Source of the DNA: a virus
DNA: 21,563 nt
Virus record (IMG/VR): IMGVR_UViG_3300025276_000249
Location: 1-21,563 of that record
Reading direction: 5' to 3' (one strand)
The translations under genes and the position numbers were made by a program. This document shows, one piece after another, positions 4,184-11,478 of the stretch (the first letter of the stretch is position 1; each line of letters opens with the position of its first letter). The notes beneath the pieces are model-generated. The model did no database searches. It was not told the origin of the DNA and worked only from the letters and a program-made list of their open reading frames with translations.

Positions 4184-6472
4184 ATGAAAAATTCACCAAA
4201 AATATTTGCTCATGGTAGTTATATAGGAACTACAGGTTATGCTAACCACACAAGAGCATTTTATAGAGAACTCTCTAATTATTACAATTTAAAAGTTAGA
4301 AACTTTACAGTAGGTAAATCTTGGGTAGGTTTTAATAATGAACCTCATAATAACGAGGATTATATTGATAATAAGGACAAAAAATTATTAGCAGAACAAT
4401 CTTTATGGGATAATGATAAAAATTTAAATCATCACCCATTTTATTCTAATTATTCTAATGATTTTGAACATAATGTAAATATTATTTTAAATGAAACTGA
4501 CCATCATTTTTTTTATCAAAACTATGATGGGCCCAAAATAGCATACAATGTTTGGGAAACTACTAGACAACCCGATTATTTTTTTAACCAATTAAAAACT
4601 TTTGATCAAGTTTGGGTAGCTTCTAAATGGCAGAGAGAATGTACTATAGAACAAGGAATAGAACCCCATAAAGTAAAAGTAGTACCTGAAGCTGTAGATG
4701 GGTCAATTTTTAAACCTAATAACAAATCAACCCTTCCAGAATATAAAGATAATAGATTTAAATTTATTTTATTCGGTAGATGGGATTATAGAAAATCTAC
4801 TAAAGAGATTATAGAATCTTTTTTACAAGAATTTAATGAGGATGAACCCGTTGATTTAATAGTATCTATTGATAACCCATATGCTAAAGATGAATTTAAA
4901 TCAACAGAAAATAGACTTAAAAACTACAATTTAAATGACCCTAGAATTAAAATAAAACATTTCCCAACTAGAAAAGAGTATGTTAAGTATTTACAAAAGG
5001 GGCATGTTTTTTTATCTTGCGCAAGATCAGAAGGATGGAATTTACCTCTTATTGAAGCTATGGCTTGTGGTACACCCTCTATTTATTCTAACTGTAGTGC
5101 ACAATTAGAATTTGCTGAAGGGTTAGGATTACCCGTAAATATACTATCTACATCAAAAGCAAAAAAAGGAGAATATAGTAGTTTTTCACAAGAAATGCTA
5201 GAAGGAGAATTTTATGATCCTGATTATAGCCATTTAAAAGAAGTAATGAGAGACGCTTTTAAAAATTATAAAATTCACAAAAAACAAGCATTAGAAGAAT
5301 CAAAAATAATAAGAAAAAAATTCACTTGGGACAACGCAGCTAAGATAGCGGGACAAGAAATAGAAAGTTTATTAAACAATTTACCAAAAAATAAAGTAGA
5401 AATAAGTTTTAATTTAGGGCCTAAAGTAGAGATATTGGGGCATTATGAAGATAAATATTTTATTGAATTTATAAATGGATCTACAGGTCAAGTAATACAT
5501 AGTGATACTATTAGTAATAATATGTGGACCAAATGTAGCAAAAGTTATAATATACCTTGGATAATAAAAGTAAATAATAAAATTGTCCATACTTTTAATT
5601 TAGAAAATAAAACAGTAAAAATATCATTTGAATCAAAATCTATAGGGGATACCTTAGCATGGGCACCACAAATAATAGAATTTAAAAATAAATACAAATG
5701 TAATGTTATAGTTAGCACATTCCATAATGAATGGTTTCAAAATTCAAATTCTTATAAGGGTATTAAATTTGTAAGTCCTGGAGAAGACCATCCCTGTTAT
5801 GCCCATTTCCAAATTGGGTGGTTTAGAGATGAAAAAGGGGGATGGAAAAATTTCTCCGACCACCCTAACCAAGTAAATACTATCCCTTTAATAAAAACAG
5901 CAAGTGATATTTTAAATATTCCTTATACTCCTATAAACCATGGTATTAATTTTACTCCACATAAAAGACCTATAAAAGGAAAATATGTTTGCATAGGACC
6001 TCAATCAACATCAGGATTAAAAGAATGGCCTCATGAAAATTGGAGAAATTTAGCTAAAATATTACATTCTAAGGGTTATAAAGTAGTTAGTTTAACTTTA
6101 AATGGTTTTAAGGGAACTAATATAATAGATAAATCAAAATTACCCTGGGATGAACTATTTAATTACATTCACCATTCAGATTTATTTATAGGACTAGGAT
6201 CAGGGTTATCTTGGATAAACTGGGCTTTAAATAAACATACAATAATGGTAAATAATTTTGTTCCTTATGGGTATGATATACCTAATAACTTAACTAAAAT
6301 TGAAAACCACAACGTATGTAATAATTGTTGGACCCACAATACTCATGTATTCGATGCAGGAGATTGGGATTGGTGCCCAGAAAATAAAGGCACACCTAAA
6401 CAACATATTTGTCAAAAATCCATTTCGGTAGAACAAGTATTACAAAAAATAAAACCTTTACTTAATGAATAA
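4184..6472 (+). CDS. Two-domain glycosyltransferase: GT4 (GT-B) fused to BAHT/TibC-like O-heptosyltransferase
   Basis: This 762-residue protein contains two transferases. Residues 1-400 form a GT-B family 4 enzyme: a glycine-rich N-terminal segment (FAHGSYIGTTGYANHTRAFY), VWVASKWQRE (143-152), KVKVVPEAVDGSIFKP (163-178), FILFGRWDYRKSTKEII (194-210), and the EGWNLPLIEAMACG nucleotide-sugar motif with the E-x7-E pair at E283 and E291. Residues ~405-762 resemble the bacterial autotransporter heptosyltransferases (BAHT; TibC, Aah): GPKVEILG, NNMWTKCSKSY, SFESKSIGDTLAWAPQIIEF (D489 is the likely GT9-type catalytic Asp), NVIVSTFHNEWF, YAHFQIGWF, IPLIKTASDILNIPY, YVCIGPQSTSGLKEWP, and four cysteines C712-x2-C715-x15-C731-x11-C743, as in the iron-binding finger of that family. 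No signal or membrane segment is seen. The 3' end overlaps the next gene by 8 bases. Substrate and sugar are unknown; virion protein O-glycosylation is a hypothesis. Confidence 0.85.
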   Translation: MKNSPKIFAHGSYIGTTGYANHTRAFYRELSNYYNLKVRNFTVGKSWVGFNNEPHNNEDYIDNKDKKLLAEQSLWDNDKNLNHHPFYSNYSNDFEHNVNIILNETDHHFFYQNYDGPKIAYNVWETTRQPDYFFNQLKTFDQVWVASKWQRECTIEQGIEPHKVKVVPEAVDGSIFKPNNKSTLPEYKDNRFKFILFGRWDYRKSTKEIIESFLQEFNEDEPVDLIVSIDNPYAKDEFKSTENRLKNYNLNDPRIKIKHFPTRKEYVKYLQKGHVFLSCARSEGWNLPLIEAMACGTPSIYSNCSAQLEFAEGLGLPVNILSTSKAKKGEYSSFSQEMLEGEFYDPDYSHLKEVMRDAFKNYKIHKKQALEESKIIRKKFTWDNAAKIAGQEIESLLNNLPKNKVEISFNLGPKVEILGHYEDKYFIEFINGSTGQVIHSDTISNNMWTKCSKSYNIPWIIKVNNKIVHTFNLENKTVKISFESKSIGDTLAWAPQIIEFKNKYKCNVIVSTFHNEWFQNSNSYKGIKFVSPGEDHPCYAHFQIGWFRDEKGGWKNFSDHPNQVNTIPLIKTASDILNIPYTPINHGINFTPHKRPIKGKYVCIGPQSTSGLKEWPHENWRNLAKILHSKGYKVVSLTLNGFKGTNIIDKSKLPWDELFNYIHHSDLFIGLGSGLSWINWALNKHTIMVNNFVPYGYDIPNNLTKIENHNVCNNCWTHNTHVFDAGDWDWCPENKGTPKQHICQKSISVEQVLQKIKPLLNE

Positions 6473-8267
6473 TAAATTTGTTTGGACAACAGGAGGGAAC
6501 CAAAATTATTTATTAATGATTGAGGTACTTGCTAAAAGTTTACTAAAATATTCAGAATACAAACTTATAGTGTATGGTTTTAATTGTGATTCTACAATTA
6601 ATTTACCTAATGTAATTAATAAAAGAATTGACTATAAACCTAAACCTACATCAAAATCTACACATGAACCGGACCTATTTAATAAAGATTATTCTATTTA
6701 CTTTGCTAAATTCTTAGCAAATCTAGATTCATTAGAAGAAAATTATAATAACTTTGCATGGATAGATGGTGATGCCTTTGTAACCGAAAATATAGATAAG
6801 TCTTTACAGTATTTATCATCTTTAAAGGATTACCCCTTATTTGCTCAATATTTTCATAAAGACATTAATCAATGGAGGCACCATAATGGTATAAGATTAG
6901 AAGGTAATTATGGTGGTGAGATAGCTGCTATAAAAAATATTAAAAGAAACCCAAACCAAAAATTATTAGCCGCTAATTTTTATTTTTATAATAGGGATAG
7001 TAAACCATTCTTTGAAAAATGTTTAGAATGGAATAAAGAATTAAATAATTATAGCCTTAAACTATATGCAGACGACAATGCTTTTTCTGAAGAAAGAGTA
7101 GCGAATAATATATTATGGGAAGAAAATAAAATATTAGATTTACCAATTACCTGGAATAACTATTACAGTTCAAAAGAAGAAACTTTAGTTGACCCTCATT
7201 TTTTAAAACAAGGATTTGATGTTATGTACGATAAATCTTCATTAGAACCCTATTTTATACATGGGCCAGACCCTTCAGTAAAACCTAAAAGTGCTAAAAC
7301 TTTAGAAAATGCATTTAACGAGTATAATGTTATGAAAAATAAAAATTTAGTTATTATTTTATGTTATTGTGACACACAAAGCAAACTTGACTTATTATCT
7401 AATATGATTTTATCATTAAAAGATAAATATGATATATTAGTATCTACCCATTCTCCTCTCCCGTTAGAAATTCAAAATAATATAGATTATTTAGTATACG
7501 ATAAAAGTAATCCTATTTTAAAATATCCTGAAAGGGGAATGGTATTTTGGAAAACAATTAATATTGAATGCACACCCTGTGGTGAAAAGCCCCCAATAAA
7601 AATATCACATATGATGAATGATTATGGGTGGACAGTTTTTAATTTAAAAAAGAATGCCATTTCTTTTTGTCAAAATTTAGATTATTCCCACTATTCTTTT
7701 ATAAATTACGATATAGAAATAACTAAAGGAGTGTTAAATATGATTAATAACCCAAAAGATTTTATATGTAGCGATTTTAAAGATCCTACTACTAATGCTT
7801 CTTTATTTCCAAGTTTATTATTTAATATTTTAAGCAAAGAAAATGCTAACAAAATTAATAACTCAATATCCAAACAAGAATATACCAGTTCAGACCCTAT
7901 AACTGGGCAATCTTTTACAGATGCAGAAGCCTATTGGGGTCATTTAATTTCTAATTTTAATTATGTTAAAGTTGAAACTGAAATTGTAGGAATGCTAAAT
8001 ACAGGAAATCCTGATGTGTTAAATTATAATAAAAGTAATGATCAATACAAATTGTTTTTTTCTGAAAATAAAGTTTTTATATATGATAATTTTGAAGAAA
8101 AACAAATAAAGATAAGAGTAAATGGGGAGGATATTACTTTAAATGATAAACAATTTACTGTGTACTTTTCTAAAATAGAAGACCTAGGATATTACCATAA
8201 TAATGAACTAATAAACCTTACTTCTAAATTAGAAAGTGATATTTATAATAGAATAGAGGAACAATAA
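6465..8267 (+). CDS. Two-domain GT-A glycosyltransferase
   Basis: The 600-residue protein overlaps the preceding transferase by 8 bases, so the two are co-translated and probably work in one pathway. Residues 1-~288 form a GT-A-type domain: VWTTGGNQNYLLMIEVLAKS at the start, a metal-binding D-x-D as AWIDGDAFV (D101, D103), LLAANFYFYNRDSKPFFEKC (acceptor-side strand and helix), DDNAF (203-207) and the metal-ligand-like FIHGPDP (H266). Residues ~291-600 look like a second, different GT-A-like domain: LVIILCYCDTQSKLDLLSNM, DILVSTHSPLPLEIQNNIDY, VYDKSNP, then NDYGWTVFNLKKNAI and YSFINYDIEI (D416 in the position of a D-x-D equivalent). The last ~100 residues are beta-rich and unassigned. No signal or membrane segment is seen. 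The sugar donor and acceptor cannot be told from sequence. The absence of a late-type motif upstream says it is transcribed with its partner. Confidence 0.8.
   Translation: MNNKFVWTTGGNQNYLLMIEVLAKSLLKYSEYKLIVYGFNCDSTINLPNVINKRIDYKPKPTSKSTHEPDLFNKDYSIYFAKFLANLDSLEENYNNFAWIDGDAFVTENIDKSLQYLSSLKDYPLFAQYFHKDINQWRHHNGIRLEGNYGGEIAAIKNIKRNPNQKLLAANFYFYNRDSKPFFEKCLEWNKELNNYSLKLYADDNAFSEERVANNILWEENKILDLPITWNNYYSSKEETLVDPHFLKQGFDVMYDKSSLEPYFIHGPDPSVKPKSAKTLENAFNEYNVMKNKNLVIILCYCDTQSKLDLLSNMILSLKDKYDILVSTHSPLPLEIQNNIDYLVYDKSNPILKYPERGMVFWKTINIECTPCGEKPPIKISHMMNDYGWTVFNLKKNAISFCQNLDYSHYSFINYDIEITKGVLNMINNPKDFICSDFKDPTTNASLFPSLLFNILSKENANKINNSISKQEYTSSDPITGQSFTDAEAYWGHLISNFNYVKVETEIVGMLNTGNPDVLNYNKSNDQYKLFFSENKVFIYDNFEEKQIKIRVNGEDITLNDKQFTVYFSKIEDLGYYHNNELINLTSKLESDIYNRIEEQ
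8239..8253 (+). promoter_or_regulatory. Late-promoter-like motif inside the 3' end of a coding region
   Basis: ATATTTATAATAGAA, one mismatch from the consensus, lies within the last ten codons of the transferase gene. It starts 28 bases upstream of another copy. It could be a second start for the gene at 8289 or a chance match in AT-rich coding sequence. Confidence 0.35.
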
Positions 8268-8288: not shown

Positions 8289-8540
8289 ATGAGTACAACA
8301 AAGTTATTACAAGAAGAGTTACAAAAGTTAAAAGATTTCCAAAGATCAGAAAATGAAATTACTTTTGCTTTAGGGCAGATAGAAATTAGAAAAACCTTTT
8401 TAGAAAATCAAAAACAAGATCTCCAAAACACTTATAAATCTCTCCTCCTGGACCAAGAAAAAACAGGTAAAGAATTACAAGAAAAATATGGAGAAGGTAA
8501 TATTGATTTAGAAAAAGGAGAATTTATTAAACTAAAATAG
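8289..8540 (+). CDS. Small coiled-coil protein upstream of tail sheath, function unknown
   Basis: This 83-residue protein is almost entirely charged, helix-forming sequence (Lys, Glu, Gln, Leu) with heptad-like leucines over residues ~5-65: LLQEELQKLKDFQRSENE, IEIRKTFLENQKQDLQNTYK. It looks like a two-helix coiled coil with a short acidic tail. It has no catalytic motif, signal or membrane segment. It has its own late-type promoter motif and sits directly before the sheath gene. A structural role or an assembly chaperone for the abundant tail proteins is possible but not demonstrated. The 58-base gap that follows holds a promoter-like motif and no convincing terminator. Confidence 0.75.
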   Translation: MSTTKLLQEELQKLKDFQRSENEITFALGQIEIRKTFLENQKQDLQNTYKSLLLDQEKTGKELQEKYGEGNIDLEKGEFIKLK

Positions 8541-8598: not shown

Positions 8599-10947
8599 AT
8601 GGCAGAAACATTATTATCTCCAGGTGTATTAGCTAGAGAAAACGACCAATCATTTATTACTCAACAACCCGCAGAAGTTGGTGCTGCTATTATAGGACCC
8701 GCTGCTTTAGGACCTGTTGAAGTACCTACATTGGTTACTTCTTTTAGTGAATATACAGCAATTTTTGGTACTACAGTACAAAGTGCATCAGTTGCATATT
8801 CATATCTAACTTCATTATCAGCGAATAATTATTTTCAAAGTGGTGGAACAAGTTTATTAGTTACTAGGGTAACTCCAGAAACCTTTACTTCTGCTACAAG
8901 TTCATTTATTAACACAGTTGATGGTTCAGAATTAAAAACAGGTACAGGTGCTGATATAGCTACTAATGCCGCAGCCTTATTTGCTGCAGGTGTTGATGCT
9001 GGTTCAGATTTTACAGGTTCGGGTACAGTAACTTATACATCTGTTGCCCCTACAACAAATGGTAGTGGAACAGGAGCAAAATTTAAGTTAGATACAACTG
9101 CTGGAGCTCCAGTAGCAATTACAGCTTCAACTGCAGGTACAGGGTACAATTTAGGAGATACATTAACATTTTCTACAAATGATAATGGTGGTTCACCAAT
9201 CGTAACAACTAGTTTGTTAGAATCAACTACATTTGCAGCAACAGATACTTATGATGCAGGTACAACTACAATTACTCCTGTAGCATCAAATTTAGATGCA
9301 ACGGGTCAAGCTTGGTCTTTAACCTTTGCAGGTGGAGCAGGTGCTTCAAATTTAACGACAATCGCCGCTACATCAGCTGGAAAAGGAGTTAAAGTAGGAG
9401 ATACATTTACTTGGACAGCAGCTGCTTTACAAACAGCTTTAGGAGGAGTAGCAGGTACAGATGTGATTATTACAGTAAAACCAGCAGATTTAACTGAAGG
9501 AACTTTTACAGTTACTTTAGTAGCAGCTAATCTATCAGATGATGTTACACCTTTTGAATTAGAAACAATTTCCGAAGGTGCAGTAATGAATACAGGAACA
9601 ACTGAATTAACAGGTGGTGCCTTATCAACTGGTTCAGCAGAAAATGTTCGTTGGTCCATCCCTTCAGTAAACACAGCCTCAGGAACATTTAGTTTAGTTA
9701 TCCGTAGAGGTAATGATAATACAAACCAACAAGTAGTATTAGAACAATATAATAATCTATCATTAGATCCATACCAACCAAATTACATATCAGCCCAAAT
9801 TGGTGATATTAGTAAAAATTTAGTTCAGGAAGGAGCAGATTCCTTTATCCAAGAATCAGGATCTTATGCTAATTTATCAAGATATGTAAGAGTAAAATCA
9901 GTAAATTTAAAAACACCTAATTATTTCGATAATAATGGTCAAGCAAAATCTCAATTTACAGGTTCTTTACCAGCAGCATCCTCAGGTTCATTTAATGGAG
10001 CAGATGGAGAAAATATAACAACTGCTACTTCTGGAAGAGTTGCTAACTTTTATGGAAACATAGGAAATGGTGCTGCATTTGATACACAAGGATTAACTGG
10101 TAGTAATTATGATAACGCAATTGCTTTATTAGGGAATGTAGATGAATACCAATATAATGTTATTAGTACTCCTGGATTACTTAACGCAACTCACGCGACA
10201 CAATTAACTAATGTATTATCAAATACAATCCAAAGAGGTGACGCAATCGCGGTATTAGATTTAGTAAAATATGGTAGTTCAATAGCATCAGTTTCTCAAG
10301 CAGCTTCTGCTTTTGATAATAGCTATGCTTCAACATATTGGCCTTGGGTACAAATGATTGATCCACAAACAGGTGAATTAGTTTATTCTCCTGCTTCAAC
10401 GGTGATTCCTGGGGTGTATGTATTTACAGACGCTTCAAGTGAACCATGGTTTGCACCTGCTGGATTAACTAGAGGAGCTTTAGGTCAAGTAGTTAGAGCT
10501 GAAAGAAAATTATCTGCAACTAATAGAGATACTTTATATGAAGCCAATGTTAACCCCTTAGCAACTTTCCCACAATCTGGAGTAGTTGTATTTGGTCAGA
10601 AAACATTACAAAAACGTGCTAGTGCTTTAGATAGAGTAAATGTACGTAGATTGTTAATTTCTCTTAAAGGATTTATATCTGGAGTAGCTGATAATTTAGT
10701 ATTTGAACAAAATACAATTGCTACAAGAAATAACTTCTTAAGTGTAGTTAATCCATATTTAGAAGGAGTACAACAACGACAGGGATTATACGCTTTTAAA
10801 GTAGTAATGGATGATACCAACAATACACCATCCACAATAGATAGAAATGAATTAGTAGGTCAGATTTTCTTACAACCAACTAAAACAGCTGAATTTGTAA
10901 TCCTAGATTTCAATGTACTACCAACTGGAGCAACATTTCCAGCGTAA
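8599..10947 (+). CDS. gp18: Contractile tail sheath protein, T4 gp18-like
   Basis: This 782-residue protein opens with the classic sheath N-terminus LLSPGVLARENDQSFI and AAIIGPAALGPVEVPTLVTS, then EYTAIFG. The C-terminal half carries the conserved sheath core: GDAIAVLDLVKYG, STYWPWVQMIDPQTGELVYS, IPGVYVFTDASSEPWFAPAG, RGALGQVVRAERKLS, NPLATFPQSGVVVFGQKTLQ, RVNVRRLLISLKGFI, and the terminal IFLQPTKTAEFVILDFNVLP. T4 gp18 is 659 residues; the excess lies in a Thr/Gly/Ala-rich region at about 110-345. There two segments (178-191 and 258-271) share a G-x-G-x-x-x-G-D-T-x-T pattern and may be repeated beta-domains exposed on the tail surface. The sheath polymerises around the tail tube and contracts to drive it into the cell. 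The gene has its own promoter-like motif and is followed by the tube gene, also separately promoted, consistent with very high late expression. Confidence 0.96.
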   Translation: MAETLLSPGVLARENDQSFITQQPAEVGAAIIGPAALGPVEVPTLVTSFSEYTAIFGTTVQSASVAYSYLTSLSANNYFQSGGTSLLVTRVTPETFTSATSSFINTVDGSELKTGTGADIATNAAALFAAGVDAGSDFTGSGTVTYTSVAPTTNGSGTGAKFKLDTTAGAPVAITASTAGTGYNLGDTLTFSTNDNGGSPIVTTSLLESTTFAATDTYDAGTTTITPVASNLDATGQAWSLTFAGGAGASNLTTIAATSAGKGVKVGDTFTWTAAALQTALGGVAGTDVIITVKPADLTEGTFTVTLVAANLSDDVTPFELETISEGAVMNTGTTELTGGALSTGSAENVRWSIPSVNTASGTFSLVIRRGNDNTNQQVVLEQYNNLSLDPYQPNYISAQIGDISKNLVQEGADSFIQESGSYANLSRYVRVKSVNLKTPNYFDNNGQAKSQFTGSLPAASSGSFNGADGENITTATSGRVANFYGNIGNGAAFDTQGLTGSNYDNAIALLGNVDEYQYNVISTPGLLNATHATQLTNVLSNTIQRGDAIAVLDLVKYGSSIASVSQAASAFDNSYASTYWPWVQMIDPQTGELVYSPASTVIPGVYVFTDASSEPWFAPAGLTRGALGQVVRAERKLSATNRDTLYEANVNPLATFPQSGVVVFGQKTLQKRASALDRVNVRRLLISLKGFISGVADNLVFEQNTIATRNNFLSVVNPYLEGVQQRQGLYAFKVVMDDTNNTPSTIDRNELVGQIFLQPTKTAEFVILDFNVLPTGATFPA

Positions 10948-10989: not shown

Positions 10990-11478
10990 ATGGCAGTATT
11001 AGATCCTAACGAAATATTTTTCACCGCTTTTGAGCCAAAACAAGCAAACAGATTCGTCATGTATATTGATGGAATTCCAGCTTATTTAGTAAAAGAAGTA
11101 GGGGCTGTAACTTTATCACAAGGTACAGTTGAATTAAATCATATGAATGTATCAAGATATGTAAAAGGAAAATCCACTTGGGATCCAATTTCTTTAACAT
11201 TATTTGACCCAATTACACCATCAGGAGCACAAGCAACTATGGAATGGGTACGTCTTCACCACGAATCAGTTACTGGTCGTGATGGGTATAGTGATTTCTA
11301 TAAAAAAGATCTTACTTTTAACGTACTAGGACCTGTAGGAGATATTGTATCTGAATGGATTATAAAAGGTGCATTTATTACAAGTACATCATTTGGAGAT
11401 TACAACTGGGATACTGTAGATACTGCTCAAAATATTAGTATAACGGTACAACCCGATTACTGTATTTTAAATTTCTAA
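10990..11478 (+). CDS. gp19: Tail tube protein, T4 gp19-like
   Basis: The 162-residue length matches T4 gp19 (163). Features of the family are visible: ANRFVMYIDGIPAYLVKEVG near the N-terminus, a strand-loop KGKSTWDPISLTLFDPI, the helix ATMEWVRLHHESVTGRDGYS, then KDLTFNVLGPVGDIVSEWII, and the closing FITSTSFGDYNWDTVD followed by ISITVQPDYCILNF. Hexamers stack to form the inner tube through which DNA passes. The gene follows the sheath directly, as in T4, and is closed by a hairpin terminator, so it is a single-gene late unit. Confidence 0.95.
   Translation: MAVLDPNEIFFTAFEPKQANRFVMYIDGIPAYLVKEVGAVTLSQGTVELNHMNVSRYVKGKSTWDPISLTLFDPITPSGAQATMEWVRLHHESVTGRDGYSDFYKKDLTFNVLGPVGDIVSEWIIKGAFITSTSFGDYNWDTVDTAQNISITVQPDYCILNF

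What the first reader, a model, noticed from the sequence alone, without database searches (positions are those of the whole stretch)
4184..6472. GT4 domain fused to a TibC/BAHT-like protein O-heptosyltransferase in a phage tail module
The C-terminal half (from about residue 405) follows the BAHT family from end to end: NNMWTK, SK-x-IGDTLAW, STFHNEWF, QIGWF, PLIKTASDILNIPY, IG-x-QSTS and a C-x2-C-x15-C-x11-C cluster (C712, C715, C731, C743) at the place of the family's iron finger. Known BAHT enzymes glycosylate Ser/Thr of autotransporter adhesins in Gram-negative bacteria. Finding one joined to a GT4 enzyme inside a phage structural region suggests a sequential protein O-glycan pathway carried by the phage.
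Basis: partly seen in the sequence, partly recalled or inferred. Interest (0 to 1): 0.78.

Follow-up and report, generated by a model that had tools for sequence, protein, structure and literature searches.

The report
Phage enzyme sugar-coating collagen-like fibres
A marine bacterial virus carries a two-part sugar-adding enzyme next to its tail genes; its relatives in viruses and bacteria repeatedly sit beside collagen-like proteins made of glycine, serine and threonine repeats, which suggests that this enzyme family decorates such repeat proteins rather than the bacterial adhesins it was first known from.

Summary
ORF 4184-6472 joins a GT4 glycosyltransferase to a TibC-like (BAHT) domain in a T4-like tail module. 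TIGR04414 matches at E=8e-57 but at 193 bits, under its 200-bit cut-off. A pLDDT-90.7 model matches TibC crystals (TM to about 0.83). TibC's catalytic Asp, Thr-226, Lys-230, Trp-305 and all four iron-finger cysteines are kept in essentially all of 75 phage homologues. The adenine-contacting Arg-286 and the ring-forming thumb are absent in all 75. At least 589 virus stretches encode the domain. In 89 sampled contigs it is fused to GT4 (72) or follows a separate GT4 gene (14), and 87 have o83/tail-sheath genes downstream. The autotransporter reading is not supported: no strand-loop-strand target repeats were found. The best new clue: bacterial sister enzymes often lie within about 200 bp of small exported proteins with (Gly-Ser/Thr-Ser/Thr)n repeats, sometimes the only such arrays in the genome; some phage copies lie beside collagen-like tail fibres of the same repeat. 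I infer a phage protein O-glycosylation module acting on such fibres or other virion proteins. The window fragment itself shows no such fibre; donor, acceptor and activity are untested. New variant of a known kind.

The parts
4184..5383 (+). GT4 (GT-B) glycosyltransferase domain, residues 1-400; EX7E motif E283/E291, with R199 and K204, invariant in 47 homologues
   Evidence: Pfam PF00534 E=3e-11 and phrog_2170 E=7e-31; alignment A2; closest non-TibC solved fold 3oy2, a Chlorella virus GT
5396..6469 (+). TibC/BAHT-like O-glycosyltransferase domain, residues 405-762, with an N-terminal beta-rich subdomain at residues 404-470
   Evidence: TIGR04414 E=8e-57; TibC 4rap phmmer 1.8e-29; model pLDDT 90.7 with TMt 0.78-0.83 to TibC
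5648..5650 (+). D489, aligned with the TibC catalytic base Asp-110
   Evidence: D in 74 of 75 phage homologues, the other being a gap
6008..6022 (+). T609 and K613, aligned with TibC Thr-226 and Lys-230 (beta-phosphate contacts)
   Evidence: 75 of 75
6155..6157 (+). L658 at the place of TibC Arg-286 (adenine contact): not conserved
   Evidence: L/T/V/I/S in all 75 phage homologues
6212..6214 (+). W677, aligned with TibC Trp-305 (heptose O4 contact)
6317..6412 (+). Cysteine cluster C712, C715, C731, C743 (iron-finger position, same spacing as TibC C339/C342/C358/C370)
   Evidence: 75 of 75
6465..7319 (+). GT-A-like domain with D101-G-D103 motif; its start overlaps the end of the GT4-BAHT gene; fused directly behind BAHT in the roughly 1240-aa versions of other phages
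   Evidence: no family-library hit; the GT-A assignment is inference from the motif
7320..8267 (+). CDTQ domain of unknown fold; travels with BAHT in phages (same Mel-JY01 polypeptide by eye, LR756501 neighbour)
   Evidence: no Pfam hit; predicted model unusable, pLDDT 45
8289..8540 (+). 83-aa conserved small protein between the glycosylation cassette and the sheath
   Evidence: o83 or sheath downstream in 87 of 89 phage contigs
8599..10947 (+). Tail sheath
   Evidence: phrog_23 E=5e-62; nearest isolate Flavobacterium phage immuto
926..1441 (+). 171-aa T/S-G-S repeat protein, the only obvious Ser/Thr-Gly repeat protein in the window; possible local acceptor, weakly supported
   Evidence: repeat content; variable copy number in close relatives, absent from other BAHT phages such as L008 and L067

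Best explanation
The gene encodes a bifunctional phage protein O-glycosylation enzyme. The TibC-like domain puts the first sugar on Ser/Thr of a Gly-Ser/Thr repeat protein, most likely a collagen-like tail fibre or another virion protein of the phage itself, in the infected cell before assembly. The fused GT4 domain and the downstream GT-A-like and CDTQ domains extend or trim the glycan. Shown here: domain identities, conserved catalytic residues, synteny with tail genes, and genomic pairing of this enzyme class with (G-S/T-S/T)n proteins in bacteria and in some phages. Inferred: catalysis, order of steps, acceptor and donor. The sugar may be heptose, since phosphate- and heptose-contact residues are kept, but loss of the adenine-contacting Arg leaves the donor open. 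Without the beta-hairpin thumb it probably does not form TibC's dodecamer. The window fragment does not contain the long fibre seen in relatives, so for this phage the acceptor is extrapolated.
For: TibC homology by profile, sequence and structure with catalytic, phosphate and Cys4 residues conserved. Tail synteny in 87 of 89 contigs. Bacterial homologues found by sequence alone lie next to GTS-repeat genes: 41 bp (L021, L023), 8 bp (L022), 108 bp (L025), 172 bp (L027). Genome-wide, all 7-unit arrays of G006 (3.8 Mb), G002 (2.6 Mb) and G214 (2.3 Mb) fall beside the BAHT gene. In 201 genomes of the Methylobacter family, arrays occur in 6 of 8 genomes with this class against 7 of 193 without, p=5e-7. 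GTS neighbours in 10 of 13 bacterial loci of this class against 0 of 17 of the classical class. Phage fibres near BAHT are Pfam Collagen (E to 1e-108), two of three scanned with S74 tips; repeat ORFs lie 67 bp upstream in L087/L089/L090/L092. Mel-JY01, whose gene is far from the sheath, still has the repeat gene 1.7 kb away. Reverse scan: 11 of 120 GTS-array virus loci hold BAHT.
Against: No GTS array in the window or in its closest longer relatives (G215-G219), all fragments. Only 11 of 54 phage contigs with more than 2.5 kb upstream show such an ORF within the fetched stretch. Most GTS-array virus loci have no BAHT in the fetched stretch. Adjacency does not prove modification. Class-mates L129, L024 and L026 have no clear array next door. 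The donor-base Arg is lost.
Confidence: 0.55

Rival explanations
1. The cassette modifies host surface polysaccharide (LPS O-chain or core), changing receptors or blocking superinfection, as proposed for glycosyltransferases in the host-recognition region of pelagimyophages. BAHT here acts as a GT9-like LPS enzyme.
For: Published interpretation for marine myophages (PMC7029224); the cassette sits where the related isolate immuto has tail-fibre genes; GT9 Pfam similarity; sugar-nucleotide genes nearby.
Against: Closest family is protein O-glycosyltransferases with the Cys4 iron-finger, described as unique to that family. Bacterial sisters pair with exported repeat proteins rather than with evident LPS genes (flanks of 1.5 kb only).
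Confidence: 0.22
2. The enzyme glycosylates another structural protein made next door (sheath, tube, 83-aa protein or the 171-aa TGS-repeat protein), and the GTS fibres are an unrelated neighbour in a variable region. From my own knowledge, some mycobacteriophages are reported to glycosylate capsid and tail proteins.
For: Near-invariant position before o83-sheath-tube; TGS repeats in ORF 926-1441.
Against: Mel-JY01 and L081/L082 lack the sheath neighbourhood; the 171-aa protein is absent from many BAHT phages; bacterial sisters have no phage tail genes in their flanks but do have GTS proteins.
Confidence: 0.2
3. It heptosylates host autotransporter adhesins, as TibC/AAH do.
For: TIGR04414 similarity and conserved core residues.
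Against: Outside the SLS-partner clade, no thumb and no Arg-286, below cut-off, no SLS repeats in the records tested.
Confidence: 0.03

Closest known systems
TibC / AAH, bacterial autotransporter heptosyltransferases (TIGR04414; PDB 4rap, 4rb4; PMC4358343)
   Same: GT-B fold, catalytic Asp, Thr/Lys/Trp ligand residues, Cys4 iron-finger with identical spacing, beta-rich N-terminal subdomain
   Different: Fused to GT4, 193 bits against a 200 cut-off, Arg-286 lost, beta-hairpin thumb deleted, no SLS autotransporter partner, phage tail setting
GT4 family phage glycosyltransferases (phrog_2170)
   Same: N-terminal half, EX7E motif
   Different: Joined to a BAHT domain
Uncultured Caudovirales phage proteins already named Aah/TibC or FkbM (A0A6J5SVC1, A0A6J5SUQ0; Mel-JY01 WWT39291.1)
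   Same: Phage multidomain glycosyltransferases with BAHT-like parts; the name Aah/TibC is already used for a phage protein
   Different: No partner or acceptor proposed, to my knowledge
Glycosylated collagen-like proteins: BclA of the Bacillus exosporium; mimivirus collagen with its own hydroxylase/glycosyltransferase (PMC8968730)
   Same: Glycosylated Gly-X-Y repeats; collagen modified by a virus-encoded enzyme
   Different: Other enzymes (my knowledge); here Gly-Ser/Thr-Ser/Thr repeats in phage fibres and small exported bacterial proteins

Membership tests
BAHT (TIGR04414, autotransporter strand-loop-strand O-heptosyltransferase) | Score over the curated 200-bit cut-off | tested here: not met
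   192.8 bits, E=8e-57
BAHT | TibC-like GT-B fold | tested here: met
   TMt 0.78-0.83 to 4rap/4rb4, best hits
BAHT | Catalytic Asp-110 | tested here: met
   D489; D in 74 of 75 phage homologues, one gap
BAHT | Thr-226, Lys-230, Trp-305 | tested here: met
   T609, K613, W677; 75 of 75
BAHT | Arg-286 adenine contact | tested here: not met
   L658; no Arg in 75 phage homologues, Arg in all classical-class sequences aligned
BAHT | Four iron-finger cysteines | tested here: met
   C712/715/731/743, 75 of 75; metal binding and geometry not tested
BAHT | Beta-hairpin thumb | tested here: not met
   Thumb-tip residues F265/V266 fall in a gap in all 75; no long hairpin between strands 633-636 and 647-649 in the model
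BAHT | Dodecameric ring | not testable with these tools
   No assembly data; thumb absence argues against it
BAHT | SLS-repeat autotransporter acceptor (TIGR04415) nearby or in the genome | tested here: not met
   No match over the cut-off in 17 genomes or records; the window's own genome is incomplete
BAHT | Heptose transfer from ADP-heptose to Ser | not testable with these tools
   Needs an assay
GT4 glycosyltransferases | Pfam PF00534 over cut-off and EX7E motif | tested here: met
   43.5 bits against 26.4; E283 and E291 invariant in 47

The most novel reading that the evidence does not exclude
TIGR04414-like enzymes form two functional classes: the known one for SLS autotransporters, and an unrecognised one dedicated to O-glycosylating collagen-like Gly-Ser/Thr-Ser/Thr repeat proteins in bacteria, which widespread marine phages have joined to GT4 to glycosylate their own collagen-like tail fibres.
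Probability: 0.5. Interest if true: 0.78.

Novelty: new variant of a known kind. Interest (0 to 1): 0.62.

Why it matters
If true, a large and widespread group of uncultured phages makes glycoprotein virions with its own enzymes, and glycosyltransferases in phage host-recognition regions, usually read as LPS modifiers, would need re-reading. It would give a concrete enzyme-acceptor pair for simple Gly-Ser/Thr repeat proteins in bacteria, testable by two-gene co-expression, and would extend the TibC family beyond autotransporters.

Tried and rejected
Autotransporter acceptor: rejected by the search for TIGR04415 and the tree. Repeat protein 926-1441 as a general acceptor: weak, since many BAHT phages lack it. 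Structure of the 600-aa neighbour: pLDDT 45, unusable, so no fold search was made. The first genome-contig scan, with the single sequence, found nothing; the alignment query worked. GTS arrays in the window and near relatives: none; four complete T4-like isolate genomes without BAHT hits also had none, too few for a rate. Pattern hits in G078, G174, G181, G202 and G146 mostly read stop codons or other residues in that frame and look like artefacts, but were still counted against the hypothesis. tblastn of a GTS protein in plasmids found nothing, probably because of the low-complexity filter. Literature searches for a BAHT/collagen-like link found none in the held library; most subscription papers are not covered. 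DNA glycosylation was considered; no evidence for it was seen.

Full report
The ORF at 4184-6472 is real (762 aa) and lies in a 21.5-kb virus fragment with T4-like tail genes: head-tail adaptor Ad2 (1519-2676), sheath (8599-10947) and tube (10990-11478). The nearest isolate for sheath and tube is Flavobacterium phage immuto, so a Bacteroidota host is possible but not shown.

Domains. Residues 1-400 are GT4, with the EX7E glutamates E283 and E291 invariant in 47 homologues. Residues 404-757 match TIGR04414 along the whole profile at E=8e-57, but at 192.8 bits they fall just under the 200-bit equivalog cut-off. TibC is the only PDB sequence match and the best fold match of a confident model (pLDDT 90.7, TMt 0.78-0.83).

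Residues. With TibC as reference (PMC4358343), D110, T226, K230, W305 and the four iron-finger cysteines map to D489, T609, K613, W677, C712, C715, C731 and C743. In 75 distinct phage homologues they are all conserved, apart from one gap at the Asp column. Arg-286, which contacts adenine and is needed in TibC, is L658 here and is never Arg in the 75. So the catalytic core is TibC-like, the donor nucleotide is open, and a TibC-style dodecamer is unlikely (inference).

Distribution. In 89 phage contigs kept after removing repeat records (some near-copies remain), it is fused to GT4 in 72 and directly follows a separate GT4 gene in 14; o83 and/or sheath genes follow within seven genes in 87. Relatives add a GT-A-like domain and a PIG-L deacetylase in one chain of about 1240 aa, or genes for GT25, 2-oxoglutarate oxygenases, methyltransferases and nucleotide-sugar enzymes. 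In the window the next gene (6465-8267) overlaps the GT4-BAHT gene and carries a D-G-D motif domain plus the CDTQ domain of unknown fold; its structure prediction failed.

Acceptor, bacterial side. No SLS target repeat (TIGR04415) over the cut-off was found in 17 genomes or records carrying the domain. Instead, bacterial relatives picked up by sequence similarity sit beside genes with (G-S/T-S/T/A)n repeats: L021 and L023 at 41 bp, L022 at 8 bp, L025 at 108 bp, L027 at 172 bp. Several of these proteins begin with signal-peptide-like or lipoprotein-like N-termini (judged by eye). A genome-wide pattern scan put all arrays of G006, G002 and G214 next to the enzyme gene. In 201 genomes of the Methylobacter family the enzyme splits into a 650-bit class, mostly next to SLS-like proteins, and a 300-bit class, mostly next to GTS proteins. 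Arrays occur in 6 of 8 genomes with the second class against 7 of 193 others (p=5e-7). In two of the six (G003, G066) the strict array is elsewhere in the genome and only a weaker one is adjacent. GTS neighbours occur in 10 of 13 loci of this class and 0 of 17 of the classical class. Genomes of one family are related, so these p-values overstate independence; the separate lineages (Polaromonas, Arenicellales, another gammaproteobacterium, Methylobacter relatives) give the stronger argument.

Acceptor, phage side. Large collagen-like repeat proteins, some with S74 chaperone tips, lie upstream of GT4-BAHT in L042, L044, L051, L058, L069, L087, L089, L090, L092 and others. Mel-JY01, whose gene is away from the sheath, also has one 1.7 kb off. 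From the other side, 11 of 120 virus loci chosen only for GTS arrays contain BAHT; the true background of BAHT is unknown because the scan was truncated. The window lineage shows no array in fragments up to about 35 kb, and only 11 of 54 phage contigs with more than 2.5 kb upstream show a repeat ORF in the fetched stretch. The phage-side link is therefore weaker than the bacterial one.

Phylogeny. SLS-partner enzymes form one clade (100/100) and the marine phage domains another (100/100). The phage clade lies on the side of most GTS-partner bacterial enzymes (91/83, moderate); two GTS-partner rows and one megaphage row fall nearer the SLS clade. The root is a midpoint, for drawing only.

Conclusion. 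The LPS-modification reading from the literature (PMC7029224) remains the main rival. Phage proteins have already been named Aah/TibC in public tables, so the phage homologue is not new by itself; the pairing with GTS-repeat proteins is the part for which I found no report in the papers available here.

Noticed in passing
window 7320-8267; L016; L018; L047: CDTQ domain (about 300 aa, no Pfam, PHROG or NCBIfam hit) recurs in phage glycosylation cassettes, in up to three copies in L047; probably an undescribed sugar-related enzyme domain.
   Followed up: partly
L006:1671-3729, L085:3684-4298: GT25 glycosyltransferase and 2-oxoglutarate oxygenase genes near collagen-like or S74 fibres and BAHT, reminiscent of collagen hydroxylation and glycosylation.
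   Followed up: partly
L004:1527-2972, L013:5774-6805: APS kinase-like, cytidylyltransferase-like and DUF2061 genes (in L004 also a HAD-like gene) inserted just before GT4-BAHT in several phages; possible activated-donor supply.
   Followed up: partly
window 8599-10947 and homologues: Sheath proteins come in two main length classes (about 566-604 and 750-793 aa); the window's is of the long class and rich in Ser/Thr in its N-terminal half.
   Followed up: no
L020 (JAAEPJ010000383.1): A contig binned in a bacterial MAG is a phage of this group (sheath, tube, GT4-BAHT).
   Followed up: no
LR756501.1 (W03): A 735-kb phage genome has over 1000 matches to the GTS-repeat pattern and a BAHT gene.
   Followed up: no
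L026 / L115: Bacteroidetes MAG contig with CDTQ-BAHT, GT4-GTA and methyltransferase genes in a row; may be a phage or prophage.
   Followed up: no
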